Shown here one piece after another: positions 1-24,007 of a stretch of 35,162 nucleotides of DNA. This stretch comes from Acidobacteriota bacterium (GTDB taxonomy: Bacteria; Acidobacteriota; Thermoanaerobaculia; Multivoradales; J023). The notes beneath the pieces are model-generated. The model worked only from the letters and a program-made list of their open reading frames with translations. It searched no databases and was not told where the DNA came from. The stretch lies in assembly GCA_029263395.1 (NCBI GenBank), contig JAJCXO010000167.1:1-35162 (forward strand), written 5' to 3'. The translations under genes and the position numbers were made by a program. The number at the start of each line of letters is the position of its first letter. Position 1 is the first letter of the stretch.

Positions 1-3000
1 ACTCCCTAACCGGACCTCGGTCTCCAATCCGGTATCGGCCGAACCGTTCGCCGTAAGTTCCGCCAACACGAGGTCCAACTGCAAAATTGCGGCCGCGGTC
101 ACATCGCTGCCTGCCAAGCCGACAGCCGCCATGCTGAGGGCCGTCATCTCGGCACTCACCGTTTTGGCGAAGGCGCCAACCGCCACCTCCATCGGCCCAT
201 GGCTGTCCAAGTCTGCGAGACCCTCCTCAGCATAGAGATGGAGCACCCGGACCGTTGTTGTGGGAGCGGAGGCACGCAGCGCCTGGACCAGAAACAGCAA
301 GCCGAGCATTCCGGCCTCGTCGGCTGGCCACAAATGTAAGATCTCCCGAGGCGAGTTACTCGAGCTTGCCAGGGTTTCGCACAGCCGCAGGTAGTCTTCC
401 GCCCGCGTCGGATCGATCTCGAAGGTGTCGTTCGTAACTCGGCGAAAAGCCTGACCCGGTTGCACCAACACCGCCGACCGTTGGCCGGTCAGCGACCGGT
501 GCAACGCCTCACCGGTGTCAAAAACCAGCACTGCCGACTCGCCACCGTCCGCCGCCAGCTCTCGCTCGACCTCCTGCCAACGTGGCTCGAAGGTCACCAC
601 CTCCTGGTCGCGACGCACAAAGGGCATCATGGTGAAGTCTTGGATCGCGACACAGGGCAGGCCGGTCTCGTCCATCAGGGTAATGTGGTACTTGCGGCTG
701 TCTCCAGCTCGACCGACCCGCTGGGCATAAGCCCAACCACGTTCCGGCACCGGCCGGATGATGTGCACCTTGCCCATCACAAACGGCACGTAGGGAATCC
801 CCCGTTCTTCCCACAGCCCTAGGGTGGTTTGCGTCGAGCCGTCCAACATCGAGGGATGCAACACCATGTCCCCAAGATCCCCCAGGAGATCCCGAGGAAA
901 GCTCAGCCGCGACAGCGAGCTTTCCTCGCCATGCCAAAGCTCTTGGATGGTCTGGTAGGTCTCATGATGGACGATACCGCCGGCCCGCATGAAGTCGTAA
1001 CACCAATCCTGCGGGCGATGTCGATCGAGACCCTCACGTAATGCCGTCAGATCTATCGGCTGGGACCACTGCGGATCCGTTGCGGGATCGGTGAAGTACA
1101 ACTTGCCGCGGGCGAAGGACTCACGCTCCCCGCTTTCGTTGACTCCAACCATCTCGAACTGCAAATGGTCGGCAACGGGGGAAAGTTCGATCTCAATCGC
1201 TTGGTGTGACTCCTCGAGCGCAATCGGTCGCGACCAGACAATGTTCTCGAGCAATCCCACCTTACGACCGCACGCGACCTCGCCGGCTGCCCGTGCCATC
1301 TCCAAGTAGCCGACACCTGGCAAGGTCGGCAACCCGCCAACCACGTGGTCGCGCAGGACAAAATGTTCGGCGGCGAACACCTTGCGATATGCCTGACGGC
1401 CAAACGTCGACACGTTGGTATCAATGAAAGTGTGTAAGGGCTTCAGGGCAGATTGGCCGACCACCGGATCCTCGGTACCGATCCAATGCCGTTGACGGGC
1501 GAAGGGATAGGTCGGCAAAGAAACACGGCGACCACTCCCGACCGGGCGTACCCCTCGCCAATCGGCTAACACACCGTCGCACCACAGCCGCGCCAGCTTG
1601 TGGGGGTTACCACGGCGCACCAGAATCTGGACGATCTCTTCGCGCTCATCGCCGTCGAGCAGCGCAGCGAAGGAGGCCGCACTCTTGGCATGACCGGTCA
1701 CGACGGTGGCATGCTCGCCACCGCCAAGAAATCGTTTCAGGCCAGCCAGGACTTCTCCACGGGAGCCCGCGACCACCGCCAAACGATGTTCCATGCTGCG
1801 GCGCCCGAGTTGCAGGGTGAAGGTCATGTCACGGAGATCGAGGTTGTCGAGCCAACCCGCTTCCAACGCCTCGACAAATCGGGTTGCATAAGCTTGCAGC
1901 CGTTCGTCATTTCGGGCGGACAACACGAACACCTCGGCACCGGCGGCACCGACGGCACCGACCCCAGATGGCCTTCGATCGGCGTGCTCCTCGAGAATCA
2001 AATGGGCGTTGGCGCCCCCTGCACCGAAGGAGCTCAGGCCGCCCCGGCGAGGAACTTCGTGACCGTCCACCACCGGCCGCAGCCAAGACTCGGCATGCCG
2101 CTGGACCACAAACGGTGTCGAGTCGAACTCGATCAACTCGTTGAGCTCTTCGGTGTGCAGCGACGGCACCAACTGACGGTGGCGAAACTGCAGCAGCAGC
2201 TTGCTGAGGCCGGCGATCCCGGCGGCGGCTTCGAGGTGTCCAATATTCGACTTGACTGAGCCGATCGCACAGAAACCGTTGTCGGTCTTGTGGGGACCCG
2301 CCGCACGGTCACGATAGGCCGCGGTGAGGGCCTGGACCTCGATCGGGTCGCCGAGCTTGGTGCCCGTGCCATGCGCCTCGACGTAACTGACGGTCCGCGA
2401 GTCGATTGCCGCCCGTTCGAACGCCTTGCCGATCAAAGCGCGTTGCGCCTTGACTCCCGGCACGGTAAATCCGCTCGCCTTGCCACCGTGGTTGACCGCG
2501 CTGGCACGAATCACACCGTAAATCTGATCCCCATCCCGCTCTGCGTCGGCTAGCGGCTTGAGCAGAACCGCCCCTACCCCCTCGCCTGCAACATAACCAT
2601 TTGCACCGGCGCCGAAGGCACGGCACCGTCCGTCCGGGGACAGGAAGCCGCCACCCGCGGTGACCACCCGTTTGCTGGGATGTAAGTCGAGATTGACGCC
2701 ACCCGCTATTGCCGCCCGGCAGTCGCCTCGCCGAATCGCCTCACAGGCCATGTGAATCGCCGTCAAGCTCGACGAACAGGCGGTATCAATCGCCATACTC
2801 GGACCGGTGAAGTCCATGAAGTAGGACACCCGATTGGCGATCGCCCACAGATAAGAGTTGGGACCGACAACGTGCCCTTTGAACGCCTCCTCAGCACCCA
2901 CCGTCTGATAGAAGGTCCAGACCGCACCCACAAAGACCCCGACATCACGGCTCTCGCCAGCCGGTACCAACGTTTCGGGAAGATAGCCGGCATCTTCCAT

Positions 3001-6000
3001 CACCTCCCAGGCAACTTGCAGGAACAGCCGTTCCTGAGGGTCCATCACAATGGCTTCGCGGGGGGCGATGTTGAAGAACAGCGAATCGAATCGGTCCACA
3101 TCACGGATGAATCCGCCCCATTTCAACTCGGGCTTACCGAGTGCAGCTCGCTGGCGATAATCCCAACGATCGCGAGGAACCTCCCCGACACAGTCCCGCC
3201 CAGCCACCAGGTTCTGCCAGAACTGGCCGAGATTCTCGGCCTCCGGATAGCGGCCCGCGAGCCCGACGATAGCAATCCCTTCCACCGACGATGGACCTCG
3301 GCTCAGCTCGCCGGCATGGACCGACCCAGGGCTCGTCTGTAGCGGCCTTTCCGCGAGCACCGGCGACTGCCCGGCCGAGGCCGACGCCTGGTCTGCCGAG
3401 GCCGGCGGCTGCCCTGCCAGACGGTAGACGGCCTTCGACTCACCAAAGAACCCCGGTGGACGACTGACCAGCTCGAGCGACGGCACCGGCTGCGCCGACC
3501 GCCAAAGATCGACCAACCGGCTGATCATTACGCCAACGTCTTGGTCTGTCAGGCCAAGCGGCACAGCCAGCCGGAGCATACGATTCAGTGCAGTGTCTCG
3601 CAGTAGCCCAGCACTGTGTTGCGCCACCCGAATCCCGGTCTCTCGGAACACCTGCGCACCCAGGGCAGCCACCGCCGAACCGCCACCGCTTAATCCGGAC
3701 CAACGCCCACTATCCAGCAACACACAATGCGTCCCGGGACGCCCGGCGACCGGCAGCCCACCCTCATGTAAACCCTGCCACAGGCTCGTTACTTGATTCA
3801 CCCGGCGAACGACCAACTGCTCTACGCTACGATGGTCAGACACCGCCCGAGCCATCAGCCGGCGGTCACGGGCGTTGAGACCGCTACCACAGGTAGACAC
3901 AACATCGCGCAACCGCCCGTAGAACGCTTCATCGCGGAGGGCAATCAAGCCTCCAACGTTGACCGCGAAGTCCTTGGTCAGACTGGCAGTGACAATATCC
4001 GCCAGCTTGAGCGTTTCGCGGGCGGCCTGCCAAAGGTCGCCCGGCCGAGCCGGACTGTGACCGCCATCACCCTCGTAACGCAGCACCCACAGTGCGTTCT
4101 CGAGAACCCGCGTCGCATCGATCACCAGTGGAATGCCATGGGGTGCCAGCAGGTGACGGACCGCGGTCAGGTTGGCCCGCGACACGGGTCGCCCCCCCGC
4201 TGCGTTGTCTGCTAGCTCGATGCAAACGAAGGCCACTTCGTTGGCAGCGGCCTGTAAACGGGTCTCGAGCGCTGACAGATTGAGATCACCGCCGAACACG
4301 TCTGCCTGCGGGTTCGAGGCTGCTGACGCCTCAGCTCCCGCCAACACCGCTGGGTGATTCAACTCCTCGGGTTCGAAGCCTTTGTCTACCTGATGGAAGA
4401 TCCAGGTTGGAAACAGGCCATTCTGCAGCACGAGCTTTTTGGCTTTGGGTCCCGCCTTCGGCCAAGCCTCCGTCAAGTAGGACTCGGCTTGGCGACCCGA
4501 GGACACCGGGATCAGATGGCGGAAGGGAAAAACCTGTCGTAAGGCGGTCTCCAAGTCCGGCGCTGGATCGCGCTGATCTTCCAGCGATCGGATCTGCTGA
4601 TCGATAGTTGGGTTGTCGAGCTCTGCCCAAGAATCCGTCATCAAGTCGAAAGGCACCTGATCAGGCGCGATGGCCAGCGGATTGTGGCCGTGACGTTCGA
4701 GGAGCTCCGAGTGGTCCTGCACAGACGTGGTCTGCACAGGCGTGGCAGGTCGCTCGGCTGCAACCCTGGCAGCGGATGCCTCCACGGCGAACGGTTCTGC
4801 AGCAGCCAGTTCGGCGGCGAGCGGTTCGGCGGCGAGCGGTTCGGCAGTAGCCGGCTCTCCGGAAGCCGGCTCAATAGCAGAATTTTCGGTCCTCAGCAGC
4901 CCAGTCGCCAGGTAGTTTGGCGGATCGGCAATCATCACCAACACGTCCGCGGCAGAGGCGGCGTCGAGCCCCTGAGGCCGACACAGGAAGAGGCATCGAT
5001 TATCGGGACGGAATTTGTTCTTGAACTGGAAATTCCCCTGCCCGAAGTCGCCGCGCTCACGGAGTTGGTCGAACAGCTCTACGACCGCTGGGTCAGCGTT
5101 AAGAGAGGGGCCAAGATCGGGGCCGTAGGTTGCCCCCAGGCTGTAGGCAGTTGCCCCTTCCTCACGCAGGATCTCCAAGATCTGGACGACGGCAAACTCC
5201 AACCCACCCAACGGCATGTCGGCGCCGTAGAACTCTAGATCCATCAACCAAGAGCCGGTGTCGAGGGCCGCAATCAGAATTGCATTTTGTAACTGTTCGT
5301 CGAGCCAGGTCGTGAACAGGCGGTACGACGGATCCAAGTGGCCGGCAAGCAACTCGCGACGGACATCGGCCACAAAGGGATTAACGTCCCCCTTCAGGGC
5401 ACACCAATCGTCGATCACGGCGGCGATGGCCTGCTCTGTCTGGGGGTTTGTTCCCGGCTGATACTCGACCGTGACCGAGCTACCCAACTTGGCAAACCGC
5501 GAGACCATGTAACGCAAGCGGCGCTTCGACCGGCCTCCGAGGCTGAAGTCAGTGATGTCAGCCAAGCGCTGCATCGCACCCATCGGAGTGGCCGTGAAGG
5601 TGACTCCAGAGACCGCCTCCAGCCTCTCCTCCGTCAGGATATTGAGGCCCAGACCGTGTTGATCGCAGTGGTCGGCCAACTCGACGATGAGTGCGTCACG
5701 GGCACTCGCCGGTCCGGTGTAAGCAAAGGCCAGCAACTGCCGAGCGTCGTAGTTGACGTTGAAGTAGGCTTGGCGGGAGGCCCCCAAGAAAACGAATGGA
5801 CCGATGCTTCGAGTTGCGATCGAAACACTGAATTCGGAGCGTGGCAGCTGCCGAATATCGGCCAAGACAAGCCGCAGATCTTCTCGCTGCTCTGCCTCGC
5901 TCCCCCGGAGCAAGATGGGTGCCGGTGCCGGTGACGGTGTTGGTGTTGGTGACGGTGACGGTGCGGACGACACGGTCTGTGACGGTCCGAGGGAAGACGA

Positions 6001-9000
6001 TCCGCCAGAAGATGGTGCCACCTCGACTGCAGTTGATCCAGGATCTTCAGAAACCTCGAGGCCGAACCGCTGCGCCAACGCGTCGCCATTCTCGCGCACC
6101 AAACATTCGGTGAACTCGATCAGATTGGCATTTTCGAACAACAACGTTTTTCGCAGGCTACCGAGCTCATCTTCCAGCAGCTTGATGACCCGCAGGGCGA
6201 CGATCGAGTCGACGCCGTAATCCATGAACGAATCGATATCGACAATCTCAGAGTCCCGTAGCTTGAGGGCCGAACCCACCACGGTTCTCAGCCATGCCAA
6301 CGTCTTTTCACTGACAGCCCGCTTGTCGGTGCCAGGTTGTCTGTCAGTGACAGCCCTCGTGGACTCGGTCTCATGGTTCGAGACTTCGGCTGGTCGAGCT
6401 GGAACCTCTCGCGCATCGTCTGGAGGATCCCCGGTCAAGCCAGGCCCTCCAGTCTTGCTAACGGATCGCGTCATGTTCATCTCCGAAGAAGCATCTAGTG
6501 AAGTTGCGATCGAGAAGGATGGAAAGTCTTCGAGCGGCCATGCGTTGAGCGCCGCCTCAATGGCGCTGCGTTCTCCGCAGGCGGGTATCAGCCGGGGCTC
6601 ATCACCGGCGAGCACGGTGAGCAGGGCGGCCAAGCCCTGGTGCTCGCTCATCGGCTGGGTCCCCGTATGGTCGATCCAGCGAGCGAGCTCGTCGGGGCCG
6701 AGTTGCATGCCGCCGTCTCGCCACAAAGGCCAATTGACGGAAAAGAGGCGACAGTGGGCGCCATTGCGAGACGACGCCCAAGCGTCCATGAAACCGTTGG
6801 CATAGGCATAGTCGGCCTGCCCCGGGTTGCCACACGCCGCGGTCAGCGACGAATACAGCAACATGAAGTCGACCGAGGACTCCGGTTCCACACAAAAAAC
6901 CTGGTCCAGCACCTGTGTGCCGCGCACCTTAGGTCGTAAAACGGCTTCGAAGTCCTCAACCGACTTCAGGTAGAACAACCGATCGAGAATCAATCCAGCA
7001 CAGTGAAAGATGCCGTCCACCCTGCCAAAACGTTCCAGCGCCTGCGTCCGGACTCGACGCATGTCGGCCGGGTCAGCAACATCAGCGCTGAGATAAAGCA
7101 CCTCCGTCTGCTGCCGTAATCGCTCCAGAGGATCCGCCGCAGCCTGGGCGGAACGGCCGGTGAGCACCAGGTTTGCCCCGAGGGTCGACGCCAGGTAACG
7201 GGCCACAATCAAGCCCAAACCTCCGGTGCCACCGGTGATCAAGTAGGTCCCCCCATGGCGCAGCAGAGGAACTGCCGCCACCGTTTCGACCGGAGACGGC
7301 TGGCAGGCTTCGAGCCCATGGATCCAGCGTCGACGACCCGACGAGTCGTGACGGCTGGTGATGTGCAGGACTGCATTCTGCTGATCCAGACTCTGTTGAT
7401 CTAGACTCTGCTGATCCAGACTCTGCGGAGCCGTCAGCTCGGCCCGTAGCTGCGCTGCATCAAGAGGCTCGTCGGTATCGAGCAGAATAAACGAGAATGG
7501 CGGGTGCTCTTGATGGATGGTCGCGAAGAACGATGGTAGTGCTGCCACCACCGGCGGTGTTCGCTCGCCACGATGCGACCACACAACCATAAAGCGGATT
7601 GCAGCGCCCGCCGTCACTTTCACCAAGATACGACAGAGATGGAACAAGGTCCGAAGGCCAACGTCCAAATTACGTTCCAGGGCCTCGTGCTCGGGCAACA
7701 CGCCACCCCCGGCGGTCGAGGCGGGTTCCCCGAGCAGGCAAATCACAGCCTGCGGAATTCGCCCGCCGAGCCGCAGGTCTCGAATCAGAGCTTCCAGGTC
7801 TTCGGCCGATCCAGGGCGAAGGCTCGCTTGATTGGAATCCTGCAAGCGATAAGCTTCTCCAGCCCGCACCCGACAGTCCACTCGACCGCCCACAATCGAT
7901 GGACCGGTAGCCCGCCAATCCAACCAAAGCACCGACGCTGGATCCTGAGACTCCAACTCTCGAGACACTTCAGCCGGACTCGCACCGGGTGCCATCGACA
8001 CCTGAGGTAGAGATCTCAGGGACGGTCGGTAGTAGTGAACATCCGTGCCCGCCGCACCGGGTGGCGCCAGCCCCGGCAAGGGCTCGGCCCCTAAAGAGAC
8101 CTCGGCACTCGACAGGACCTCGGGCCTCGATGGCGTCGACCGCGGGAGGCGCTTGAACATGCAGCCACCGAAGATAGCCAACGGCCGGCCAGTGTCGTCG
8201 AACAGACCGATGTCACACGACCAAAATCCAGTGGCTGATCCGACCGGTGCCCGCATGACCACGTGGGCATACCCGGCGTCACCGGTGGGCGCAAAAAAAC
8301 GCACACGATCGAAGGCAAACGGCAACGCCAGCTCGGCCTCATCACCCTGGAGCGCCAGCGCGGCCTGCAACGCTCCGTCCGCCAGGCTGGGATGCAGATA
8401 AAACGGATGGGACGCCTGGCGAGCCGCTGCTACCGGCAACTCGAGTCGAATCAGCGCCCGGGTGTCATCCAACCAACCGGTCTGAAGCGCGCGCAACGTC
8501 GGGCCATAGTGGAAGCCAATCGCCGCGAAGTGCTGGTAGACCTGCTGACGGTCCAAACCACAGCCTGCCGCCTTCAGCTCCTCTTCGACCGCCGCCAAGT
8601 CCAGGCTGGCAACATCGCGGCGATCCGCCTTGCCGGCAGCAACTAACCGTCCCGCAACATGGATGTGCGCATCGCTCTCACCAGAAACCACCTTAAACGA
8701 CCAGCCATCCTCATCCGGCTCAAGAATGAGCCGGGCTTCGCAGCCGACATCAGACGCCCCCTCCTCACCAGGGGCCGGTTCCAAGTCTGCACCCTCAACT
8801 TCCACCACTGTTGGGCCAGCACAATCCACCTCGAGCGGTCGACTGAAGACCACATCAACCAACTCGACAGGCTCCACGCTGAGTCGTTCAGCTGCCGCAC
8901 GGACCATCTCCAGGTAGGCAACTCCGGGCAGAACACAACGCTCTTGGATGACGTGGTCAGCAACGTAGAACACGTCCGTTGACAAGGCCTTGAGAAAAAC

Positions 9001-12000
9001 GGCGTGCAGACCGCCAAAGGCTGGGTCCCCAACAATCGTTTGGTGATCAATCAGCGGGTGGTACGACTTGGTGGCCGGCCCATCTTCGAACGCCGGGGCA
9101 GGCTCGGCTTCGGCTTGATCGCTGAGACGCGGAAACCAGGTTCGCTCGCCAGCAAACGGATAGGTCGGCAGTGAGCAGCGCCTGGGGAAACCGGCCGGAT
9201 AGAGGCTAAGCCAATCCACAGGCGTACCGTCGAGCCAGGCACGAGCCAGCGCCACAAGGTCTTGCGAGCTGCCCCCAGAATCCAAACGAAGTGGCTTTTG
9301 CTCAACCTCAGGTCTGCGCTGCGGCACCGTTCGCGCCTGGATGCGACTCAGGATGGCCCCGTCGACTTCATCGTCGCCCGGCCCGCCGGGCCCTGTTTCC
9401 GCGAGACCTGTTCCTTCGAACCCTGTTTCCTCGAGACCTGTTCCCTCGAACCCTGTTCCATCGAGACCTGTTCCATCGAGACCTGTTCCATCGAACCATC
9501 GTGCCAGGCGATCAGCCGCCTGGGCACGATCATCAACAACACAGGCGAGCCGAGCTGCCATAGGTTCGCGGCCAACCTGCAAGGTGTAACAAACCGAGGC
9601 CAGCGAAGGCGTGTTGCCGCTCGATGGTTCACGCAGACACTGCACCAGGTCCTGAGCCCGTGCGCGCAAGCGATCTTCGTCACGGGCCGACAGCACCAAC
9701 AGATATGGGCCAGAGTTGCTCGGCTCCACAGTATCTCCACGCCGTACCCCGTCGGGCGCTTCCTCGACGATCAGATGGGCATTGGAACCCCCTGCGCCAA
9801 ACGAGCTGACGCCGCCACGACGAGGGCTGTCCTCTCCTTCACTGGCAGACTGCCAGGGTTCGCAGGCTTCTTGCACGACAAACGGAGAGCTGGCGAAGTC
9901 GATCCGGGGATTCAAGGATTCGCCATGGGGCGACGGCACCAAGGTGCGGTGGCGGAGCTGCATCAATAACTTGGTCAAGCCGGCCACCCCAGCCGCCGCA
10001 ATCAGATGCCCAATATTCGACTTGACCGAACCGAGAGCACAGAAGCCGACGTCCGCGGTGTGATCACGGAACGCTCGGGTCAGTCCTTCGACCTCGATCG
10101 GATCCCCCAATCGGGTCCCTGTGCCATGGCCTTCGACATACGAGATGGTGCGGGCATCAACCCCGGCATCAGCCAGCGCATCCCGTACCAGCTCTGCCTG
10201 GGCGGCGGGATCAGGTACCGTGTAGCCACTGGTTCGCCCACCCGAGTTGATCGCGCTGCCGCGCACCACCCCATAAATGTGATCGCCGTCGGCCAGGGCT
10301 GCCTCCAACGGTTTGAGGAGGACCGACGCAACGCCCTCGGCATCGACAAATCCCCCTGGTCCGTCACCATAGGGTTGCTCGTCGGAGCCTGCCAGCAACA
10401 TCTTCTTGCCGCAGAACTGGACGACTCGATAGGGGTGTAACGTCAGATTGACGCCGCCGGCCAGTGCCATCTCACATTCACCGCGACGCAGACTCTGAAC
10501 TGCCAAATGGATCGCGGTCAACGACGAGGAGCAAGCACTGTCGACTGCCAGACTCGGCCCGTGCAGATCGAAAAAATACGACACACGATTGGCCACGTCG
10601 TAAGCATCGGTATCGGGAATCTGGACATTACCGTGCAGCGACTCTTCCATCGCCGCCAAGGCATAGGTGTTGGTAGTGAACCCGGCAAACACCCCGGTCC
10701 GACGCGGTAGCTGGCTACGCTGATAACCCGCATCTTCGAAACAGGCCCAGGCGTTCTCCAAGAAGAGTCGTTGCTGAGGGTCCATCAGCTCCGCCTGCCA
10801 ACGCGAGATGTTGAAGAACAACGGGTCGAATCGATCGGCGCCGTCCAAGAACCCGCCCCAGCGCGTGTAGGCCTTGTCCGCGTGCTCGCCGGTTTCGTCG
10901 TAGAAGGCCTCGGCGTCCCAGCGCTCGGCCGGCACCTCACCCGTCGAGATTTGCCCCGCTTTCAAGTTCTCCCAGAACAAGCGAATATTCGCAGCCCCTG
11001 GAAAGCGCCCCGCCAGACCGACGACGGCAATCGCAGACCGTGTCGACGCGGCAGCACCCACCGCATTCGAACGGTCAATCGACGCCACTTGCCGATCAGC
11101 GACAGGAGTTTTCGACGGCACCGCGGCAGCCGTCTCATCACCAGCCGTCCCATCAACAGGCACGTGGAAAAGCGTGGCCAAAGCTTCGGATCGATGGTGG
11201 CAGAGATACTCGCCCAAGTCCGCCAGCGTCGAAAATTCGAATAACAAGGTCTGAGGCAACGGTCCGAGATGCTGCCCGAGGGCCGCCAACCATTCCTCGT
11301 TGGTCACCGAATCGACATCGTAGTCGTCGATCAGAGACGCATGCGGGTCGAGATCTTCCGGGGCATATTCCAACAACTCAGCCAGCTGTTCACGGAGCCA
11401 GTCGACCGTCCGCGGCAACAGCTCCAGCTGTGGCGAGGGTTCAGCTTCAGAACGCTCGAGCTGCGCAGACGCGGTTGCACCTACAGCGAGAGTAGATGGG
11501 GCTTGATCCTCGGCGTGCAACGCCGGATGGAGCCAGAGGCGATCACCTTCGAACGGATAAAGCGGCAGCGCACAGGTGCGGAACGATCCGGCCGGATAAA
11601 GATCGCCCCAGGCGACCCCCCCACCGCCCAACCAGCGTCGAACCAGCACGCCGAGGCTGTCTGACTCCCCAGGCTCTGAGCCTTCGACGGAGCCAGCGGT
11701 TGCCGGCTTCCAACTCGACAAGAAGGTTCGCAGTTCCTGCCACGAACCTACCAACGTGCCGGTGCGACAGTCGAAGTCGGATCTACCGGTCAACAGCGTC
11801 GCACAAGCGTCCCGGAGGCTCGTATTCGGCTCCAATTCGTCGGCCACGAAGGCGGCCCAGCGCTCGACCAAATTTGTGAGCGCGTTGGAGCTGCGGGCCG
11901 ACAGTAAAAACGGGTGACGGCCGACGCCCGTGCGGGTTTTGCTATCTGTTGGCGCGGCCGGAGGAGAGGCGAGGACAACATGGGCATTCGAGCCGCCGAT

Positions 12001-13311
12001 ACCGAATGAGCTCACCCCGGCTCGTAGGATGCCGTCGGCATCCACACCCTCCCAGGGCTGGTTACCCTCGGCTAATCTAAACGGCGAGTCGACGAGGTGG
12101 ATACCCGGGTGAAGACGCTCGAAATGCAGATTCCCCGGAATGCTGTGATGCTCCATCATCAGCAGCACCTTGATCACACCGGCCAGTCCAGAGCAGGCTT
12201 CGAGGTGCCCGATGTGGGTTTTCACCGCTCCCAAGGTGCAGAAGTGGTTAGCCGCCGTCCGTTCACGGAAAGCCTCCGTGAGGGCTCCGATTTCGACCGA
12301 ATCTCCCAACGGCGTTCCAGTGCCGTGGGTCTCGACAAAAGTGACCGTCTCGGGAGGCCAGCCCGATTCGTCGAGCGCTGCGCTGATCACCTGGCGCTGT
12401 GCTGCAACCTGCGGAACGGTCAACGAACGGGCATGGCCGCCGTGATTGGTAGCGGAGCCTTGGATAACGCCGAGAATGCGATGCCCCGCCGCCAGCGCAT
12501 CGCGCAACGGCTGGAGGAGCAGCACCGCAACCCCTTCTCCCGGCACATACCCGTCAGCGGCTTGGTCAAACGTTTTGCAGCGGCCCGTTGGGCTCAACAT
12601 GCGTGCCTTGGAGAACGACACATACTTGCCGGGATGCAGATTCAGATTGACGCCCGCCGCAAAGGCATAGCGACTCTCGCCACAAAGTAACGACTTCCTC
12701 GCCTCGTGTAAGGCCACCAACGACGACGCATGGGCAGCATCAACGCTGAGGCTGGGACCGCGCAGTCCCAAGGCATATGAGATCCGGTTGGCGAGTAATC
12801 CATGGCTGTTCCCCAGACCGGTGTAACGATCGATGAGACGCCCGCCTGAGGTGGCCTGCTGAAGATAGTCCGCCCCCATCGCGCCGACAAAAACCGCCGT
12901 CGTCTGCTCACGCAACTCGGTTGCCGGGATCCCGGAGTCTTCCAGGCAATGCCAGGTCTCCTCCAACAGCAAACGCTGCTGTGGGTCCATAGCCCGAGCC
13001 TCCCGAGGACTGATGTCGAAGAACCGTGCGTCGAATCGCTCGACCTCGTCGAGGAAGCCTCCCCACTTGCTGACGCTCTTATTCGGCGCCTCACGATCCG
13101 GCGAATAGAACGCTTCGCCATCCCACCGTTGAGCTGGAATCTCCCCCACCGCGTCCAAGCCGCGGCCGAGATTCCGCCAGAAGGCGCGATAGTTGTCAGC
13201 TCCAGGAAAACGGCACGCCATGCCCACCACGGCAATATCGCGTTCAAAACGCTCTGCCACGGCGATGTCCCCGCTCTCCTGAGGCCCACTCATGACCATT
13301 TGCCTGGTCAT
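1..13311 (-). CDS. Giant trans-AT type I polyketide synthase with internal GNAT-like/cysteine-lyase (DUF-SH-like) didomain; C-terminus beyond window
   Basis: One frame of 4437 codons runs unbroken from ATG 13311 to the left edge. The start is chosen for GGAG five bases upstream; ATGs at 13299 and 13293 lack such a site. Domains by residue: KS1 ~24-447 with His194 in place of the nucleophilic Cys; ACP1 (Ser668); KS2 ~757-1182 (Cys927, both HGTGT and NIGH histidines); DH (His1453, Asp1645); KR (GGTGGLG ~2022, Tyr2168); ACP2 (GVDS, Ser2369); DUF2156/GNAT-like ~2467-2784; tryptophanase-like PLP lyase ~2874-3296 (Lys3113); KS3 ~3341-3773 (Cys3512); DH (His3989, Asp4157); start of a KR structural half. 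No AT domain is present, so malonyl units must be loaded by a separate acyltransferase (trans-AT). By analogy with LnmJ of leinamycin, module 2 would make an enoyl thioester, add cysteine and cleave it to a thiol. The product is unknown. Confidence 0.95.
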   Translation of the reverse strand, partial: MTRQMVMSGPQESGDIAVAERFERDIAVVGMACRFPGADNYRAFWRNLGRGLDAVGEIPAQRWDGEAFYSPDREAPNKSVSKWGGFLDEVERFDARFFDISPREARAMDPQQRLLLEETWHCLEDSGIPATELREQTTAVFVGAMGADYLQQATSGGRLIDRYTGLGNSHGLLANRISYALGLRGPSLSVDAAHASSLVALHEARKSLLCGESRYAFAAGVNLNLHPGKYVSFSKARMLSPTGRCKTFDQAADGYVPGEGVAVLLLQPLRDALAAGHRILGVIQGSATNHGGHARSLTVPQVAAQRQVISAALDESGWPPETVTFVETHGTGTPLGDSVEIGALTEAFRERTAANHFCTLGAVKTHIGHLEACSGLAGVIKVLLMMEHHSIPGNLHFERLHPGIHLVDSPFRLAEGNQPWEGVDADGILRAGVSSFGIGGSNAHVVLASPPAAPTDSKTRTGVGRHPFLLSARSSNALTNLVERWAAFVADELEPNTSLRDACATLLTGRSDFDCRTGTLVGSWQELRTFLSSWKPATAGSVEGSEPGESDSLGVLVRRWLGGGGVAWGDLYPAGSFRTCALPLYPFEGDRLWLHPALHAEDQAPSTLAVGATASAQLERSEAEPSPQLELLPRTVDWLREQLAELLEYAPEDLDPHASLIDDYDVDSVTNEEWLAALGQHLGPLPQTLLFEFSTLADLGEYLCHHRSEALATLFHVPVDGTAGDETAAAVPSKTPVADRQVASIDRSNAVGAAASTRSAIAVVGLAGRFPGAANIRLFWENLKAGQISTGEVPAERWDAEAFYDETGEHADKAYTRWGGFLDGADRFDPLFFNISRWQAELMDPQQRLFLENAWACFEDAGYQRSQLPRRTGVFAGFTTNTYALAAMEESLHGNVQIPDTDAYDVANRVSYFFDLHGPSLAVDSACSSSLTAIHLAVQSLRRGECEMALAGGVNLTLHPYRVVQFCGKKMLLAGSDEQPYGDGPGGFVDAEGVASVLLKPLEAALADGDHIYGVVRGSAINSGGRTSGYTVPDPAAQAELVRDALADAGVDARTISYVEGHGTGTRLGDPIEVEGLTRAFRDHTADVGFCALGSVKSNIGHLIAAAGVAGLTKLLMQLRHRTLVPSPHGESLNPRIDFASSPFVVQEACEPWQSASEGEDSPRRGGVSSFGAGGSNAHLIVEEAPDGVRRGDTVEPSNSGPYLLVLSARDEDRLRARAQDLVQCLREPSSGNTPSLASVCYTLQVGREPMAARLACVVDDRAQAADRLARWFDGTGLDGTGLDGTGFEGTGLEETGFEGTGLAETGPGGPGDDEVDGAILSRIQARTVPQRRPEVEQKPLRLDSGGSSQDLVALARAWLDGTPVDWLSLYPAGFPRRCSLPTYPFAGERTWFPRLSDQAEAEPAPAFEDGPATKSYHPLIDHQTIVGDPAFGGLHAVFLKALSTDVFYVADHVIQERCVLPGVAYLEMVRAAAERLSVEPVELVDVVFSRPLEVDCAGPTVVEVEGADLEPAPGEEGASDVGCEARLILEPDEDGWSFKVVSGESDAHIHVAGRLVAAGKADRRDVASLDLAAVEEELKAAGCGLDRQQVYQHFAAIGFHYGPTLRALQTGWLDDTRALIRLELPVAAARQASHPFYLHPSLADGALQAALALQGDEAELALPFAFDRVRFFAPTGDAGYAHVVMRAPVGSATGFWSCDIGLFDDTGRPLAIFGGCMFKRLPRSTPSRPEVLSSAEVSLGAEPLPGLAPPGAAGTDVHYYRPSLRSLPQVSMAPGASPAEVSRELESQDPASVLWLDWRATGPSIVGGRVDCRVRAGEAYRLQDSNQASLRPGSAEDLEALIRDLRLGGRIPQAVICLLGEPASTAGGGVLPEHEALERNLDVGLRTLFHLCRILVKVTAGAAIRFMVVWSHRGERTPPVVAALPSFFATIHQEHPPFSFILLDTDEPLDAAQLRAELTAPQSLDQQSLDQQSLDQQNAVLHITSRHDSSGRRRWIHGLEACQPSPVETVAAVPLLRHGGTYLITGGTGGLGLIVARYLASTLGANLVLTGRSAQAAADPLERLRQQTEVLYLSADVADPADMRRVRTQALERFGRVDGIFHCAGLILDRLFYLKSVEDFEAVLRPKVRGTQVLDQVFCVEPESSVDFMLLYSSLTAACGNPGQADYAYANGFMDAWASSRNGAHCRLFSVNWPLWRDGGMQLGPDELARWIDHTGTQPMSEHQGLAALLTVLAGDEPRLIPACGERSAIEAALNAWPLEDFPSFSIATSLDASSEMNMTRSVSKTGGPGLTGDPPDDAREVPARPAEVSNHETESTRAVTDRQPGTDKRAVSEKTLAWLRTVVGSALKLRDSEIVDIDSFMDYGVDSIVALRVIKLLEDELGSLRKTLLFENANLIEFTECLVRENGDALAQRFGLEVSEDPGSTAVEVAPSSGGSSSLGPSQTVSSAPSPSPTPTPSPAPAPILLRGSEAEQREDLRLVLADIRQLPRSEFSVSIATRSIGPFVFLGASRQAYFNVNYDARQLLAFAYTGPASARDALIVELADHCDQHGLGLNILTEERLEAVSGVTFTATPMGAMQRLADITDFSLGGRSKRRLRYMVSRFAKLGSSVTVEYQPGTNPQTEQAIAAVIDDWCALKGDVNPFVADVRRELLAGHLDPSYRLFTTWLDEQLQNAILIAALDTGSWLMDLEFYGADMPLGGLEFAVVQILEILREEGATAYSLGATYGPDLGPSLNADPAVVELFDQLRERGDFGQGNFQFKNKFRPDNRCLFLCRPQGLDAASAADVLVMIADPPNYLATGLLRTENSAIEPASGEPATAEPLAAEPLAAELAAAEPFAVEASAARVAAERPATPVQTTSVQDHSELLERHGHNPLAIAPDQVPFDLMTDSWAELDNPTIDQQIRSLEDQRDPAPDLETALRQVFPFRHLIPVSSGRQAESYLTEAWPKAGPKAKKLVLQNGLFPTWIFHQVDKGFEPEELNHPAVLAGAEASAASNPQADVFGGDLNLSALETRLQAAANEVAFVCIELADNAAGGRPVSRANLTAVRHLLAPHGIPLVIDATRVLENALWVLRYEGDGGHSPARPGDLWQAARETLKLADIVTASLTKDFAVNVGGLIALRDEAFYGRLRDVVSTCGSGLNARDRRLMARAVSDHRSVEQLVVRRVNQVTSLWQGLHEGGLPVAGRPGTHCVLLDSGRWSGLSGGGSAVAALGAQVFRETGIRVAQHSAGLLRDTALNRMLRLAVPLGLTDQDVGVMISRLVDLWRSAQPVPSLELVSRPPGFFGESKAVYRLAGQPPASADQASASAGQSPVLAERPLQTSPGSVHAGELSRGPSSVEGIAIVGLAGRYPEAENLGQFWQNLVAGRDCVGEVPRDRWDYRQRAALGKPELKWGGFIRDVDRFDSLFFNIAPREAIVMDPQERLFLQVAWEVMEDAGYLPETLVPAGESRDVGVFVGAVWTFYQTVGAEEAFKGHVVGPNSYLWAIANRVSYFMDFTGPSMAIDTACSSSLTAIHMACEAIRRGDCRAAIAGGVNLDLHPSKRVVTAGGGFLSPDGRCRAFGAGANGYVAGEGVGAVLLKPLADAERDGDQIYGVIRASAVNHGGKASGFTVPGVKAQRALIGKAFERAAIDSRTVSYVEAHGTGTKLGDPIEVQALTAAYRDRAAGPHKTDNGFCAIGSVKSNIGHLEAAAGIAGLSKLLLQFRHRQLVPSLHTEELNELIEFDSTPFVVQRHAESWLRPVVDGHEVPRRGGLSSFGAGGANAHLILEEHADRRPSGVGAVGAAGAEVFVLSARNDERLQAYATRFVEALEAGWLDNLDLRDMTFTLQLGRRSMEHRLAVVAGSRGEVLAGLKRFLGGGEHATVVTGHAKSAASFAALLDGDEREEIVQILVRRGNPHKLARLWCDGVLADWRGVRPVGSGRRVSLPTYPFARQRHWIGTEDPVVGQSALKPLHTFIDTNVSTFGRQAYRKVFAAEHFVLRDHVVGGLPTLPGVGYLEMARAAGEVACGRKVGLLENIVWSRPIALEESHQAIEIELSPVADHLQFEMVGVNESGERESFARGKLYFTDPATDPQWSQPIDLTALREGLDRHRPQDWCYDFMRAGGIVHHETYQTIQELWHGEESSLSRLSFPRDLLGDLGDMVLHPSMLDGSTQTTLGLWEERGIPYVPFVMGKVHIIRPVPERGWAYAQRVGRAGDSRKYHITLMDETGLPCVAIQDFTMMPFVRRDQEVVTFEPRWQEVERELAADGGESAVLVFDTGEALHRSLTGQRSAVLVQPGQAFRRVTNDTFEIDPTRAEDYLRLCETLASSSNSPREILHLWPADEAGMLGLLFLVQALRASAPTTTVRVLHLYAEEGLADLDSHGPMEVAVGAFAKTVSAEMTALSMAAVGLAGSDVTAAAILQLDLVLAELTANGSADTGLETEVRLGS
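3424..4692 (-). other. PLP-dependent cysteine-lyase (SH-like) domain of tryptophanase fold
   Basis: PKS residues ~2874-3296. Tryptophanase/tyrosine phenol-lyase landmarks occur in order: LMTDSW near the start, IPVSSGRQAE, NAAGGRPVSRANL, LVIDATRVLENA (PLP-ring Asp) and SLTKDF with the Schiff-base Lys3113, then a C-terminal LRLAVP segment. This family breaks C-beta bonds of amino acids. In LnmJ the equivalent SH domain cleaves an S-cysteinyl polyketide to a thiol, pyruvate and ammonia. The domain sits between ACP2 and KS3, not at the protein end. Confidence 0.85.
4960..5913 (-). other. DUF2156 / GNAT-like domain preceding the lyase (LnmJ 'DUF' counterpart)
   Basis: PKS residues ~2467-2784, directly after ACP2 and a Ser/Pro/Thr linker. 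The segment contains KRRLRYMVSRFAKLG and a late LGATYGPDLG stretch. These resemble the aminoacyl-GNAT fold of phosphatidylglycerol lysyltransferase C-termini (DUF2156). In leinamycin-type synthases a domain of unknown function lies immediately before the cysteine lyase and is thought to help add cysteine to the acyl chain. Position suggests the same role here. The fold call is pattern recognition and has not been tested by profile search. Confidence 0.6.
7378..7422 (-). repeat. 15-bp tandem repeat (3 copies) in PKS KR region
   Basis: Three copies of a 15-base unit (plus form CTGCTGATCCAGACT) encode a repeated QSLDQ pentapeptide between the structural and catalytic halves of the KR. The length is again a multiple of three, so the frame is kept. 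Confidence 0.85.
9392..9496 (-). repeat. 15-bp tandem repeat (7 copies) inside a PKS linker
   Basis: Seven in-frame copies of a 15-base unit (plus-strand form CCTGTTCCATCGAGA, with variants) encode a pentapeptide of DGTGL/EGTGF type at residues ~1272-1307. They lie in the linker after KS2. Copies 5 and 6 are identical, which points to recent slippage. The unit length keeps the frame. Confidence 0.9.
11971..13242 (-). other. KS1 domain with Cys-to-His active-site substitution
   Basis: First ketosynthase of the PKS, residues ~24-447. The nucleophile motif reads VDAAHASSL; the usual form is (D)xACSSSL, so the acylated Cys is His194 (codon CAT, plus 12730-12732). The two catalytic-His motifs, HGTGT and THIGHLEA, are intact. 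A ketosynthase without the Cys cannot hold an acyl chain by the normal mechanism, so this is probably a non-elongating or decarboxylating/loading domain. It differs from the familiar KSQ type (Gln) and from KS0 types, which usually lose the His. ACP1 follows directly, giving a KS-ACP unit with no reducing domains at the protein's N-terminus. Confidence 0.85.
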
Positions 13312-13669
13312 CAGGTCTCCATTGCAACGAGTGCAATCCAAGAATTTAGACACCACGCCTCTACCAACCTAGAAAATCCAGGTCAGGCAAATGAACAACC
13401 CCAGATCCAGCCGAGCGCAACGGTCGCTCCCATCTCGACAGGCACCAGAGCCAACTACGCGGCTTGAAGGCGAGACTCTAACCGCTTCCAGCACTCAACG
13501 CACAATGTGAGAGGAGACGCCAATCCTGGCGCAAATCACCACTGCAATTTAGACATTTCTCTTTATGTATTCTTTGGCGTGAATACATCGCGCCAACCAT
13601 TCCATCTCGACACACCGCAGCCGGTCTGTGGAGCAGGAAGATCAGTGGCGATCGAGGGGCGGCGAGGGG
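13312..13669. other. Intergenic region upstream of the PKS
   Basis: 358 bases lie between the SGNH gene and the PKS, both on the minus strand, and no convincing gene was seen. The AT-richest stretch, near 13545-13590, holds the dyad described separately and is the most likely place for a PKS promoter. No confident -35/-10 pair could be assigned. Confidence 0.5.
13565..13588. promoter_or_regulatory. Dyad ATGTATTC-N8-GAATACAT, possible operator
   Basis: Perfect 8-base inverted repeat arms separated by 8 bases, about 255 bases upstream of the PKS start and 82 bases downstream of the SGNH stop. The spacing and symmetry fit a dimeric regulator site. No T-run follows on either strand, so it does not look like a terminator. 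Confidence 0.45.
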
Positions 13670-15269: not shown

Positions 15270-15670
15270 CCCAGTGGACTTCCAACGAGTTTCGCCAAGC
15301 GTTCAGGGTCGTCCAGAGGGCTTCTCCTGTTTTACAAGAGCCTTCCAGGACCGTCCGGAAGACTTCTAGCGTTTTGCGCAAGACTTTCAGGACCGTCCGG
15401 AAGGCTTCTGGCGTTTTGCCAAAGACCGTCAGAAGGGTCAGAAAGACTAATGACGTTTTACCCAAGACCTTCAGGACCGTCCGGGAAGGTTTCTGGCGTT
15501 TTGACAAAGACCGTCAGGAGGGTCAGAAAGACTAATGACGTTTTACCCAAGACCTTCAGGACCGTCCCGAAGGTTTCTGGCATTTTGCCCAAGACCTTCA
15601 GGACCGTCCGGGAACGCTTTTGTAGTTTACCCAAAACCTTCAGGACCGTCCGGCAACGCTTTGGGCACAA
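15270..15670. repeat. 42-bp-period degenerate tandem array A (about 9 units)
   Basis: Units carry the landmark AGGACCGTCC followed by GGAAGG.TTCTGGCGTTTT. Landmarks fall near 15305, 15347, 15389, 15431, 15473, 15516, 15558, 15600 and 15642, so the spacing is 42 (once 43). Long reading frames on both strands follow from the period being a multiple of three and free of stops. They have no start signals or protein character and are not annotated as genes. Confidence 0.9.
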
Positions 15671-20124: not shown

Positions 20125-20355
20125 GGAACGCCCCAACGCGCGTTCAGGCAGGCCCTGCGAGTCGCGGGTATACACAAGCTTGCCGGCTGCCACACGCTGC
20201 GTCACTCGTTTGCCACCGAGTTGCTCCGGCAAGGTTACGATATTCGAACCGTCCAAGAGCTGCTTGGCCACGCCAACGTCAACACGACGATGATTTACAC
20301 CCACGTTCTGAACCGTGGCGGAAAAGGGGTAGCAAGTCCAGCAGACAATCTCTGA
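20125..20355 (+). pseudogene. C-terminal remnant of an integron-type tyrosine recombinase
   Basis: The frame ending at TGA 20353-20355 encodes [19 protein letters not shown], then RTVQELLGH and [17 protein letters not shown]. These are the HxxR, second His and catalytic Tyr of tyrosine recombinases, and the [14 protein letters not shown] ending is typical of integron integrases (IntI). Only ~75 residues remain. The N-terminal domain and first Arg/Lys motifs are missing, and no start codon is evident. The break coincides with the 21-bp repeat array. It cannot be catalytically complete. Confidence 0.85.
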
Positions 20356-21301
20356 GAACGCTCACAAGACTGAGTAGCAGGGTGGAAACCGACAGCGGTA
20401 ACACGTTCGACGCCTTTATATGGCGAGAAGCAACAAGATGGTCTGCGCCGGCTAACGTCTGAACCGATATCAGTCAGATGTGTCTGACGGTCTCTGTTTA
20501 GGCGTCATGGTGAAGACGCACTAAACCGAGGAGCCGACAGGGCCAAGGCATCCTAAGGCTTTTAGATTGAATATCTTGAAGGGTGAAGTGAATCTGTAAG
20601 ATTCCGATAACGCGGCACAGCACAAACCAGATAACGCGTAGAACAACACTGCTGTAGTGCTACCCGAATACGTACCCGTCCGCGTAATAGAGACCGAGCG
20701 CTTGTGCCACGCTGAGAAACCCTTCTTCCTCCGAGACATACCCGAGGAGCCCTGCCGGCTATAGAGTCGCTAGCCGGACGCCTTCAAGTCGTATATACCA
20801 AGACGAATCACCTCTCCCTGCGCAGGCATGACACCAATCGAGTCGTGTTACGCGGACACAGTGATGTCGCGTTGACACTTCCCCTTCGCCCCTTGTAGAG
20901 TTAAGCTCACGTCTTGGCATTTAGGGCCCATAGGCCCATCAGGGAAGGTCGATTTCCGCCCAATTACGCGGACGCTAAGTGACGCATAAAAATTAAAGAC
21001 AAGGTTGAGGTCTTATTTGTACTGTTGAACTAAACCGCTTCGCGGCAGACACCACTCCGTATCGCTTGCCTATATTTAATGTCCTCTAACTCCGAAGGTC
21101 TGTGGGCTCAGATCTCCAAGCACGACTGTCCATCCGTAGGATCGTACGTCTCACAGACTTTGCCTGCCGCAGCCTTTCTTCTGAAGGGCGTAGTTTCTGT
21201 TTGCCTTTCGCTTGGCTCTGTTCGCAAGGCATAGCGCCTCCAGCTTGGAGGGCGCCGCGATACTGTTTTCCAGAATCTTTAACTCTGGAAAGGAGTATCT
21301 C
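20356..21301. other. Stretch without a clear gene, between integrase stub and IS91-like element
   Basis: No gene is supported. A weak attC-like hairpin lies at 20450-20503. A promoter-like pair TTGACA-N18-TAGAGT lies at 20872-20901. From ~20900 the sequence becomes AT-richer. The 10-mer TAAAAATTAA at ~20990 is inverted at ~23752, perhaps marking the ends of the inserted element. Confidence 0.45.
20872..20901 (+). promoter_or_regulatory. Possible sigma70-type promoter toward the IS91-like element
   Basis: A perfect TTGACA is separated by 18 bases from TAGAGT. It faces the recombinase gene 400 bases downstream. It is a sequence match only. Confidence 0.35.
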
Positions 21302-22141
21302 ATGCATCGAACGACGGTAGCTATCATCGAAGAGCTGCAATCCATGGGCCGCAGCCAATCAACGGTTCAGGCCTACGCCGCTGCAACAGAAAGATTTTAC
21401 AAGTTCCATAGAAAGTCGCCTGCTGATCTGATTTGTAAGGATGCTTATGACTATCTTTGGGATCTCTACAACGTCCAGAAAGTGTCGGGCTCTGTCTACC
21501 GTACCCATCTCTGTGCTTTGCGTTTCCTCTATAAATATGTGCTTGAGCTGTCTACAGACTTCGGAAAGGTCCCTCGGGAACCAAGAGGCAAGACGTTGCC
21601 TGTGGTGCTGAGCCAGAGGGAGATTACGAGAATTCTCGCGGTTACGACGAATCTGAAACATCGCACCCTTATGATGACTGCTTACTCTGGGGGACTCCGT
21701 GTCAGTGAAGTCTGCCAGCTTCGAGTGGTCGATATCGATAGCGAGCTCATGCACATCCACGTACGTAACGGCAAGGGGCGCAAGGATCGTTATGTGATGC
21801 TCTCCGAGAGCTTGCTACCCAAACTCCGCGAGTACTACAAAGTTTATCGGCCCAAGATCTGGCTCTTCCCGTCTTCCAGGGGCGAGCATCCGCTGGGGGC
21901 GAGCTCCGCTCAAAGGGTCTTCTCGAGATCGCGGAGGAAGGCGGGGATCCGCAAGCCCGCTACGTTTCACTCCATGCGCCACAGCTTTGCGACCCATCTC
22001 CTCGAGGGCGGAGCGGAGCTATGCTACATCCAGAAACTGCTGGGGCACGCATCGCTGAGCACGACCCTGGTCTACACCAAGGTCACGACAACCGGCGCCA
22101 CGAAGATCCGCAGTCCTCTCGATTATCTTCAACTCGAGTAG
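21302..22141 (+). CDS. Tyrosine recombinase of IS91-like element
   Basis: 279 aa from ATG 21302, chosen because AGGAG lies seven bases upstream. A SAM-like core-binding domain (~1-90) precedes the catalytic domain. The catalytic residues are complete: Arg133 (SGGLRVSE), Lys158 (GKGRK), His223/Arg226 (HSMRHSF), His249 (LLGHAS) and nucleophile Tyr258 (LVYTKV). Its stop abuts the transposase start, so the two are translationally coupled. It probably assists transposition or dimer resolution. It is not an integron integrase: the IntI-type ending is absent. Confidence 0.9.
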   Translation: MHRTTVAIIEELQSMGRSQSTVQAYAAATERFYKFHRKSPADLICKDAYDYLWDLYNVQKVSGSVYRTHLCALRFLYKYVLELSTDFGKVPREPRGKTLPVVLSQREITRILAVTTNLKHRTLMMTAYSGGLRVSEVCQLRVVDIDSELMHIHVRNGKGRKDRYVMLSESLLPKLREYYKVYRPKIWLFPSSRGEHPLGASSAQRVFSRSRRKAGIRKPATFHSMRHSFATHLLEGGAELCYIQKLLGHASLSTTLVYTKVTTTGATKIRSPLDYLQLE

Positions 22142-23338: not shown

Positions 23339-24007
23339 AACCTATGCCCTCCACGTCAAACGGTAGCAGCCCGAGTCGCCAAGCAGACGACTGGAGGGCT
23401 CCGTCTACCTTGCGGCAGCGATCTGGCATATACTCCCTACCTATGAATTCGTATTTGGCTATAGGGATGGCAGCAGACTCCGCCAATGCACTGTGTGGAG
23501 CGCTTGGAGGCTCTCATCGCAAGCATGATCGGACCCGAACCAGAAGCGTTCGTCAGTCCGCCGAGCGATTCAAACGCCATAGCCGTCCTCGCCGCTCGGG
23601 ACGCGGCTTAGCTCAACAACTTCCAATCCGAAATCCGTCTCTGCGCCGCCGCTGATGACTGTGGCAAGGTGCTCCCTATTATGACGACAGGCGTTCTCGT
23701 CCGGACTTCAGATTGGAACCTGCCCTGTTGAACGGGACCCGCTCCGCGGGAATTAATTTTTAATGTTTATAGCTGCTCGAGTGTCTCCGTGCCTAAGTAT
23801 ATCGATCTTTAGCAAGGTAATTGATAGTCGGTGAGCAGCGGTCGATATTGAGGACTCCCATCCTTCCGGGGCTCAATGTTGCTGGCGCCGGGCAGTATGC
23901 TAGCATTTGCACGCGGACCGGAGCCCGCCGCGCACCTACCCAAGAAAATATAATCTTTTCCTCTCGCCGCCAAAGATCCGGCGAGTACTTTACGTCCTCT
24001 TATATAT
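23339..24007. other. Non-coding stretch between the two IS91-like transposases
   Basis: Apart from a terminator-like hairpin at 23738-23761 and a hairpin near 23963-23985 with TATAAT just before it, nothing coding is supported. A plus-strand reading frame overlapping the first transposase end has no family character. Confidence 0.5.
23738..23763 (+). terminator. Probable rho-independent terminator or IS end hairpin
   Basis: The stem CCCGC/GCGGG with loop TCC is followed by AATTAATTTTT. It lies 400 bases past the transposase stop. The stem is short, so it may equally be the subterminal hairpin of the IS91-like element. Confidence 0.4.

What the first reader, a model, noticed from the sequence alone, without database searches (positions are those of the whole stretch)
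3424..5913. Leinamycin-type DUF-SH didomain placed inside a trans-AT PKS
Seen: ACP2 is followed by a DUF2156/GNAT-like domain and a tryptophanase-like PLP lyase with its Schiff-base Lys and Asp, then by another KS-DH-KR module. Known: in LnmJ of leinamycin the DUF-SH pair adds cysteine and cleaves it to a thiol on the last module, next to a thioesterase. Inferred: here sulfur would be installed mid-chain by a KS-DH-KR-ACP module that makes the needed enoyl thioester, and the chain would then be extended further. That would give a sulfur-bearing polyketide of a new architecture, apparently outside the actinobacteria.
Basis: partly seen in the sequence, partly recalled or inferred. Interest (0 to 1): 0.85.

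Follow-up and report, generated by a model that had tools for sequence, protein, structure and literature searches.

The report
Polyketide factory inserting sulfur twice
A giant Acidobacteriota enzyme that builds a polyketide-peptide molecule carries, twice over, the domain pair that other bacteria use to put sulfur into leinamycin-type antitumour compounds, so its unknown product probably bears two sulfur groups.

Summary
Window 3472-5889 (minus) encodes a DUF2156 (PF09924) domain and a tryptophanase/TPL-like PLP lyase with catalytic Lys and Asp intact, between ACP and KS of an AT-less PKS. This is the leinamycin DUF-SH didomain, whose characterised SH domains are thiocysteine lyases giving -SSH (PMC8479088).

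The joined 13,357-codon ORF has four KS, two DUF-SH (the second directly before an NRPS condensation domain), five C-A-PCP and TE; an AT-ER gene lies on C28. Three relatives share the layout, complete in one ORF of 17,277 codons. In a tree of 189 KS, the 54 directly after an SH domain form one clade, the window's included.

DUF-SH outside actinobacteria and before a KS is not new: 45 of 79 loci begin an ORF so, and PMC3870968 listed such proteins in 2013. Two in one line, and hand-over to an NRPS, look new. The DUF's fold is that of aminoacyl-tRNA-dependent transferases: an untested lead.

The parts
1..13356 (-). trans-AT PKS gene, first 4452 codons of the open frame; continues in frame on contig C28 (C28:57020-30291, minus) to give a joined ORF of 13,357 codons
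   Evidence: no PF00698 AT at E 1e-5
11971..13239 (-). KS0 (residues 40-462): loading-type KS with the active Cys replaced by His (DAAHASS); His also in the three relatives checked (G001, G010, L035)
11194..11400 (-). ACP0 (653-721)
9766..11031 (-). KS1 (776-1197), Cys-His-His motifs present
8182..9009 (-). DH1 (1450-1725): catalytic His and Asp present; the motif Gly reads Glu here but Gly in G001 and G010
6712..7251 (-). KR1 (2036-2215), Ser-Tyr-Asn present
6091..6294 (-). ACP1 (2355-2422), single, GVDS
4921..5889 (-). DUF domain (2490-2812), PF09924/DUF2156; predicted dual-GNAT fold of aminoacyl-tRNA-dependent transferases
3472..4710 (-). SH domain (2883-3295), PLP lyase PF01212
3973..3975 (-). 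Lys3128, predicted PLP Schiff-base lysine (SLTKDF)
   Evidence: 85 of 85
4117..4119 (-). Asp3080, predicted pyridine-N aspartate (DATR)
   Evidence: 85 of 85
1993..3276 (-).
655..1398 (-). DH2 (3987-4234)
85..534 (-). structural (N-terminal) half of KR2; the catalytic half lies on C28
1..16 (-). 16-bp overlap with the end of contig C28 (57006-57021), the only other copy in the genome; joins the two halves of the gene

Best explanation
It is a trans-AT PKS-NRPS that sulfurates its chain twice. Shown from sequence: KS0(Cys to His)-ACP / KS1-DH-KR-ACP-DUF-SH / KS2-DH-KR-ACP / KS3-DH-KR-ACP-DUF-SH / five C-A-PCP / TE. Inferred: KS0-ACP supplies a short starter (perhaps acetyl by decarboxylation of malonyl). 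KS1-DH-KR makes a 2-enoyl-ACP. The DUF adds thiocysteine (or cysteine) to C3, and the SH lyase cleaves the C-S bond with loss of pyruvate and ammonia, leaving -SSH (or -SH) on C3. KS2, from a clade that holds only KS found directly after an SH, accepts it. Two reducing, dehydrating rounds follow, and the second DUF-SH adds sulfur at the new C3, giving a 3,7-disulfurated oct-4-enoyl chain if the starter is acetyl and no trans-ER reduction occurs. The first C domain joins this to a pentapeptide, released by TE. The two sulfurs could close into a cyclic di- or polysulfide.
For: DUF and SH families, with catalytic residues invariant in 85 of 85 SH. Didomain 39-41% identical to four plasmid-borne ones, three of which have an annotated LnmK gene next (the fourth record is unannotated). 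In the SH tree 28 leinamycin-type rows form one clade and the 85 SH stand apart from three tryptophanase-like rows. KS directly after SH: 54 of 189 rows, one clade, local support 99 (FastTree), 1 change against 47.3 shuffled; control: the 40 KS one module further on need 5 changes. The upstream module keeps KR and DH catalytic residues. Gene join: 16-mer present only at the two contig ends, G001 colinear across the junction at 70% identity. Same order of domains in G001 (contig ends after the first C-A), G025 (on two contigs) and G010 (complete, one ORF on one 248-kb contig). Discrete FabD-type AT fused to a PfaD-like ER on C28.
Against: No product or activity is known. KS clade membership may reflect inheritance of an SH-KS block and not substrate choice. 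DH1 of the window has Glu for the motif Gly. The AT-ER gene could act as an ER in trans and change the alkene pattern. The role of KS0 is a guess. Preference for thiocysteine over cysteine was measured only for three leinamycin-family SH domains (PMC8479088), and SH1 and SH2 lie outside that clade. Addition by the DUF is only proposed, even in the leinamycin family (PMC8479088, PMC7618002).
Confidence: 0.75

Rival explanations
1. Same line, but the DUF uses cysteine itself and the product carries thiols (or a ring disulfide), not hydropersulfides.
For: The three leinamycin-family SH also cleave cysteine adducts, though 50- to 106-fold less well (PMC8479088). SH1 and SH2 lie outside the leinamycin clade, so their preference is untested.
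Against: Core residues are the same as in the leinamycin type.
Confidence: 0.3
2. The first DUF-SH is only transient chemistry: sulfur added at module 1 is eliminated again or used to steer the chain, and only the second didomain marks the final product.
For: Beta-sulfur next to a thioester can be lost by retro-Michael reaction (established chemistry); not tested here.
Against: After extension by KS2 the sulfur is no longer beta to the thioester. SH1 keeps its catalytic residues in the four lines seen (and in 85 of 85).
Confidence: 0.12
3. The DUF does not use free (thio)cysteine: it is an aminoacyl-tRNA-dependent transferase that brings cysteine (or cysteine persulfide) from charged tRNA(Cys).
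For: A profile of 50 DUFs matches 10 PDB sequences at E 0.001, all of the MprF/LpiA/PG-synthase kind. The predicted fold best fits MprF, A-PGS and L-PGS (Z 20.4-25.7), then a Bacteroides protein of unknown function (2hqy, 20.4), the tRNA-dependent streptothricin ligase Sbb17 (18.8) and FemX (16.9), above other GNATs (14.3 and less). LR, D, PxG and FKxKF positions are shared with the first chain aligned, 5vrv (my reading of the alignment).
Against: A shared fold shows no function. Free thiocysteine can be made by cystathionine gamma-lyase in three Streptomyces producers (PMC8479088). Acyl transfer would have to be followed by S-addition. No tRNA-binding residue was mapped.
Confidence: 0.22
4. 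The didomain is decayed or silent and the line makes an ordinary polyketide-peptide.
For: Draft assembly, no expression data.
Against: Open frames and intact catalytic residues in both didomains, here and in the relatives.
Confidence: 0.06

Closest known systems
[quoted passage not shown]
   Same: DUF2156 then PLP lyase, trans-AT PKS, AT-ER enzyme; 39-41% identity to plasmid-borne leinamycin-type didomains (PMC8479088, PMC7618002). LnmJ itself was not aligned.
   Different: There one didomain, last module, tandem ACPs, beta-branched acceptor, TE next. Here two didomains, single ACPs, an enoyl made by KR and DH, and KS or C next.
ORFs that begin ACP-DUF-SH-KS in Bacteroidota, Pseudomonadota, Acidobacteriota (Kordia algicida and a Lysobacter protein are listed in PMC3870968 Table 2)
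   Same: DUF-SH followed by KS-DH-KR-ACP-KS; their first KS lies in the same clade as the window's KS2
   Different: There the didomain sits at the N terminus (median 154 aa of open frame before the DUF in 45 loci); here KS0-ACP-KS-DH-KR precedes it and a second didomain follows. Whether theirs is a true starter module was not settled (20 loci).
MprF / alanyl-PG synthase / FemX (aminoacyl-tRNA-dependent transferases)
   Same: Fold and FKxKF-type motif of the DUF
   Different: About 20% identity to the PG synthases; tRNA use by the DUF is untested.

Membership tests
DUF-SH sulfur-inserting didomain | DUF2156/PF09924 domain directly before a PF01212 PLP lyase in one PKS protein | tested here: met
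DUF-SH sulfur-inserting didomain | PLP Lys and Asp, and conserved Arg and Asn, retained | tested here: met
   Lys3128, Asp3080, Arg3083, Arg3262 and Asn3051 in 85 of 85. PMC3870968 names two Arg and an Asn of TPL as carboxylate ligands; that mine are the same ones is assumed, not mapped.
DUF-SH sulfur-inserting didomain | trans-AT assembly line | tested here: met
   no AT domain in the ORF at E 1e-5, discrete AT-ER on C28
DUF-SH sulfur-inserting didomain | (thio)cysteine lyase activity | not testable with these tools
   needs enzyme assay
Leinamycin family proper | terminal module KS-ACP-ACP-DUF-SH-TE | tested here: not met
   KS-DH-KR-ACP-DUF-SH, then KS or C
Leinamycin family proper | beta-branching cassette (HMGS, LnmK) in the cluster | tested here: inconclusive
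   not among the 20 window ORFs scanned nor the ten C28 ORFs scanned; other C28 ORFs and the rest of the genome were not searched for it
Leinamycin family proper | SH domain inside the leinamycin SH clade | tested here: not met
   28 leinamycin-type SH are one clade (99) without WIN_SH1 or WIN_SH2
PKS-embedded aminotransferase | PLP domain of the aminotransferase families | tested here: not met
   The only Pfam hits up to E 0.1 are PF01212 and PF09924; best NCBIfam model tryptophanase, an aminotransferase only at E 0.0028, far below its cut-off
aminoacyl-tRNA-dependent transferase (MprF/FemX fold), for the DUF | sequence and fold kinship | tested here: met
aminoacyl-tRNA-dependent transferase (MprF/FemX fold), for the DUF | use of charged tRNA as donor | not testable with these tools
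   needs assay with tRNA, CysRS and RNase

The most novel reading that the evidence does not exclude
The DUF, long without known function, is a tRNA(Cys)-dependent (thio)cysteinyl transferase recruited from the MprF/FemX fold, so that the sulfur reaches the polyketide from the translation apparatus. In this line it would act twice, towards a 3,7-bis(hydropersulfide) acyl-peptide, and the DUF-only cis-AT modules of related genomes (L029, L030) would make S-cysteinyl (or aminoacyl) polyketides.
Probability: 0.2. Interest if true: 0.88.

Novelty: new variant of a known kind. Interest (0 to 1): 0.6.

Why it matters
Sulfur insertion by DUF-SH is one of few ways in which an assembly line makes a C-S bond, and leinamycin shows that such groups can be potent. 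A natural line that uses the didomain twice, between elongation steps and before an NRPS, suggests that it is portable and points to the KS type that accepts its product, which is what engineers need. The kinship of the DUF with tRNA-dependent transferases turns the open question of the DUF's role (left open in PMC8479088) into a simple test.

Tried and rejected
Rejected: PLP aminotransferase. Rejected: assembly chimera as the cause of the odd layout, since three relatives share it and one is complete on a single contig. Rejected: member of the leinamycin family proper (terminal module absent, SH outside the clade). Not resolved: whether the two didomains arose by duplication within the line; SH1+SH2 as one clade is not rejected (AU p 0.53, three long rows left out; for the DUFs p 0.19). 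A-domain specificity codes by motif gave nothing usable. A search with the FK228-type term 'mercaptoheptenoic acid' and gene cluster terms: none of the 15 papers listed held that term. 'leinamycin' with 'aminoacyl-tRNA' and 'DUF': 2 papers, unrelated by title and abstract start (listing only). 'leinamycin', 'SH domain', 'Lysobacter': 0 papers. 'Acidobacteria', 'trans-AT', 'polyketide', 'giant': 1 volume of conference abstracts, not read. 'cysteine lyase domain' with trans-AT: 1 review, not read. 'cysteine persulfide', 'cysteinyl-tRNA synthetase', 'polyketide': 2 papers, not read. Limits: the phylum survey scored only the two best candidates a genome and the class survey six, so 2 of 396 and 8 of 148 are lower bounds. 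Domain profiles were built from the window's own domains; TE, C and A rested on one seed each and miss distant forms, so the leinamycin TE shows only as a tail of about 300 aa. Domain copies under 85% of the profile were left out of the trees, and one of four tryptophanase loci gave no row (L020). In one search, L112 is filed by the script as leinamycin-type; its ORF is broken by a frame change and a KS follows, so it is better called internal. The KS tree is by FastTree and warns of some long rows.

Full report
Observation. NCBIfam's best models for the lyase are tryptophanase and tyrosine phenol-lyase, below their own cut-offs. The nearest solved structure is a chain named only 'Polyketide Synthase Protein' (9cen), 207 bits against 132 for TPL. 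In 85 SH domains from the loci collected here, the Schiff-base Lys, its Asp, two Arg and an Asn are invariant.

The gene is larger than the window. The window is one whole contig (C167) of a 10.68-Mb, 291-contig genome. The last 16 bases of its minus strand equal the first 16 of the minus strand of contig C28, in frame, and that 16-mer occurs nowhere else in the genome. A same-genus genome (G001) is colinear across the junction at 70% identity. The joined ORF has 13,357 codons. Domain order (with Pfam): KS0-ACP, KS1-DH-KR-ACP-DUF-SH, KS2-DH-KR-ACP, KS3-DH-KR-ACP-DUF-SH, five C-A-PCP, TE. KS0 has His for the active Cys, also in G001, G010 and L035. No AT was found in the ORF at E 1e-5; a 781-aa frame on C28 is a FabD-type AT (over its cut-off) fused to a PfaD-like ER (399 bits, cut-off 449), the arrangement that PMC7618002 gives for WsmJ (passages seen).

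Conservation. Of 72 genomes of the order, 6 match at E 1e-40: four (G000, G001, G010, G025) have two DUF-SH didomains, two (G005, G020) have a DUF alone. Of 148 genomes of the class, two more match, both outside the order. In G010 the whole line is a single ORF of 17,277 codons with the same PKS half and eight NRPS modules. G001's contig ends after the first C-A, and G025 has its two didomains on two contigs.

How common is the didomain? One scan of species genomes gave 120 relatives, of which the best 80 (79 loci) were kept. Of the 79: 45 begin an ORF with (ACP-)DUF-SH followed by KS (Pseudomonadota 26, Bacteroidota 15, Acidobacteriota 4); 26 are leinamycin-type, one of them (L112) better called internal; 5 are internal and followed by KS, three of these being the window's own relatives (L035, L036, L074) and two others (Marinicella L063, Spirochaetales L109); 3 are cut. 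So the didomain before a KS and outside actinobacteria is frequent. In 20 loci looked at upstream, most show no PKS module there within 10 kb, but a few have a lone KS frame and L109 has modules, so I do not claim that the N-terminal type is always a starter module. In print, PMC3870968 (passages seen, Table 2) already lists CP-DUF2156-PLP-KS proteins from Kordia algicida and Lysobacter, and an internal lyase without DUF2156 from Burkholderia gladioli; PMC8479088 (parts 1 and 3 of 7, and passages) reports three non-leinamycin families among 109 BGCs; PMC7618002 (passages) says that annotated non-leinamycin modules have one ACP and no TE. I searched whole the genomes of 50 of the 79 loci: two (G451, G464) have a second didomain, on a different contig; none has two in one ORF. 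Among all that I examined, the double line was seen only in the window's group of four. Whether it is in the supplement of PMC8479088 I could not see.

Does the next KS expect a sulfurated chain? Of 189 KS domains, the 54 directly after an SH domain form one clade (FastTree local support 99; 1 change, shuffled mean 47.3, 0 of 500 as low). They come from N-terminal, internal and window-type lines. As a control, the 40 KS one module further on need 5 changes, 4 of them forced. In trans-AT PKS, KS clades usually track the substrate (general knowledge), so KS2 probably accepts a beta-sulfurated chain. Inheritance of SH and KS as one block would give the same tree and is not excluded.

Chemistry. 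Three leinamycin-family SH are thiocysteine lyases, 50- to 106-fold better on thiocysteine than on cysteine adducts (PMC8479088). With KR and DH before each DUF-SH, both acceptors here would be enoyl thioesters. The predicted chain is 3,7-disulfurated oct-4-enoyl if the starter is acetyl and no trans-ER acts; both are inferences. The spacing recalls the 7-mercapto-4-heptenoyl group of FK228 (recalled, not from a call); this is a resemblance only.

The DUF. A model of the window DUF (pLDDT 92.7) matches MprF and lysyl- or alanyl-PG synthases (Z 20.4-25.7), then a Bacteroides protein of unknown function (2hqy, 20.4), the aminoacyl-tRNA-dependent ligase Sbb17 (18.8) and FemX (16.9), above other GNATs (14.3 and less; mycothiol synthase 13.7) (Foldseek ranks MprF/PG synthases and then FemX first). 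A profile of 50 DUFs matches 10 PDB sequences, all of that PG-synthase kind (2.4e-14 at best). The role of the DUF is open in print (PMC8479088, whose main text holds neither 'tRNA' nor 'MprF'). The kinship makes charged tRNA(Cys) a natural donor to test. My searches showed no paper proposing it; they cover open-licence papers only, and most hits were seen as listings.

DUF without SH. In two related genomes (G005, same family; G020, same order) the DUF sits in cis-AT modules KS-AT-DUF-DH-KR-ACP (L030, L029), and no SH passed E 1e-20 in those genomes. Their DUFs sit on long branches, so they may have another function; if not, the DUF can work without the lyase.

Verdict. The finding is real and its mechanism is well supported by homology. 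Its stated novelty (mid-chain, outside actinobacteria) is mostly anticipated. The double use in one line, the hand-over to an NRPS and the tRNA-transferase kinship of the DUF are what deserve attention.

Noticed in passing
L029:6119-13522 and L030:7148-15139: cis-AT PKS modules KS-AT-DUF-DH-KR-ACP with a DUF2156 domain and no SH domain, in two genomes related to the window's; a natural separation of DUF from lyase.
   Followed up: partly
window 13239-11971 (minus): N-terminal KS with active Cys replaced by His (DAAHASS), His also in three relatives (DAAHASS or NAAHASS); perhaps a decarboxylating starter KS.
   Followed up: partly
window 9009-8182 (minus): DH1 has Glu where G001 and G010 have the Gly of the HxxxG motif; catalytic His and Asp are kept.
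   Followed up: no
window 21212-25195: Phage-type integrase followed by two IS91-type transposases with zinc-binding domains. By eye the stretch 20180-20320 also reads like an integrase C-terminus; the ORF called there gave no Pfam hit.
   Followed up: no
window 25626-29576 and 33633-35162: DUF4062 protein (match of its first 170 residues to PADLOC candidate PDC-S60, E 9e-21), an AAA_16 ATPase and a NACHT protein near the transposases; a possible defence island.
   Followed up: partly
window 15335-15664: Degenerate tandem array with units of about 42 and 85 bp, in a gap near the PKS gene.
   Followed up: no
G000:C28:12287-20573 (L009, L010): On the PKS contig: CsgG-like, caspase-domain (Peptidase_C14) and CHAT-TPR genes close together.
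   Followed up: no
G475:C162 (L109, L130, L131): Spirochaetales PKS with an internal DUF-SH (KR-ACP-DUF-SH-KS), on the longest end branch of the SH tree.
   Followed up: partly
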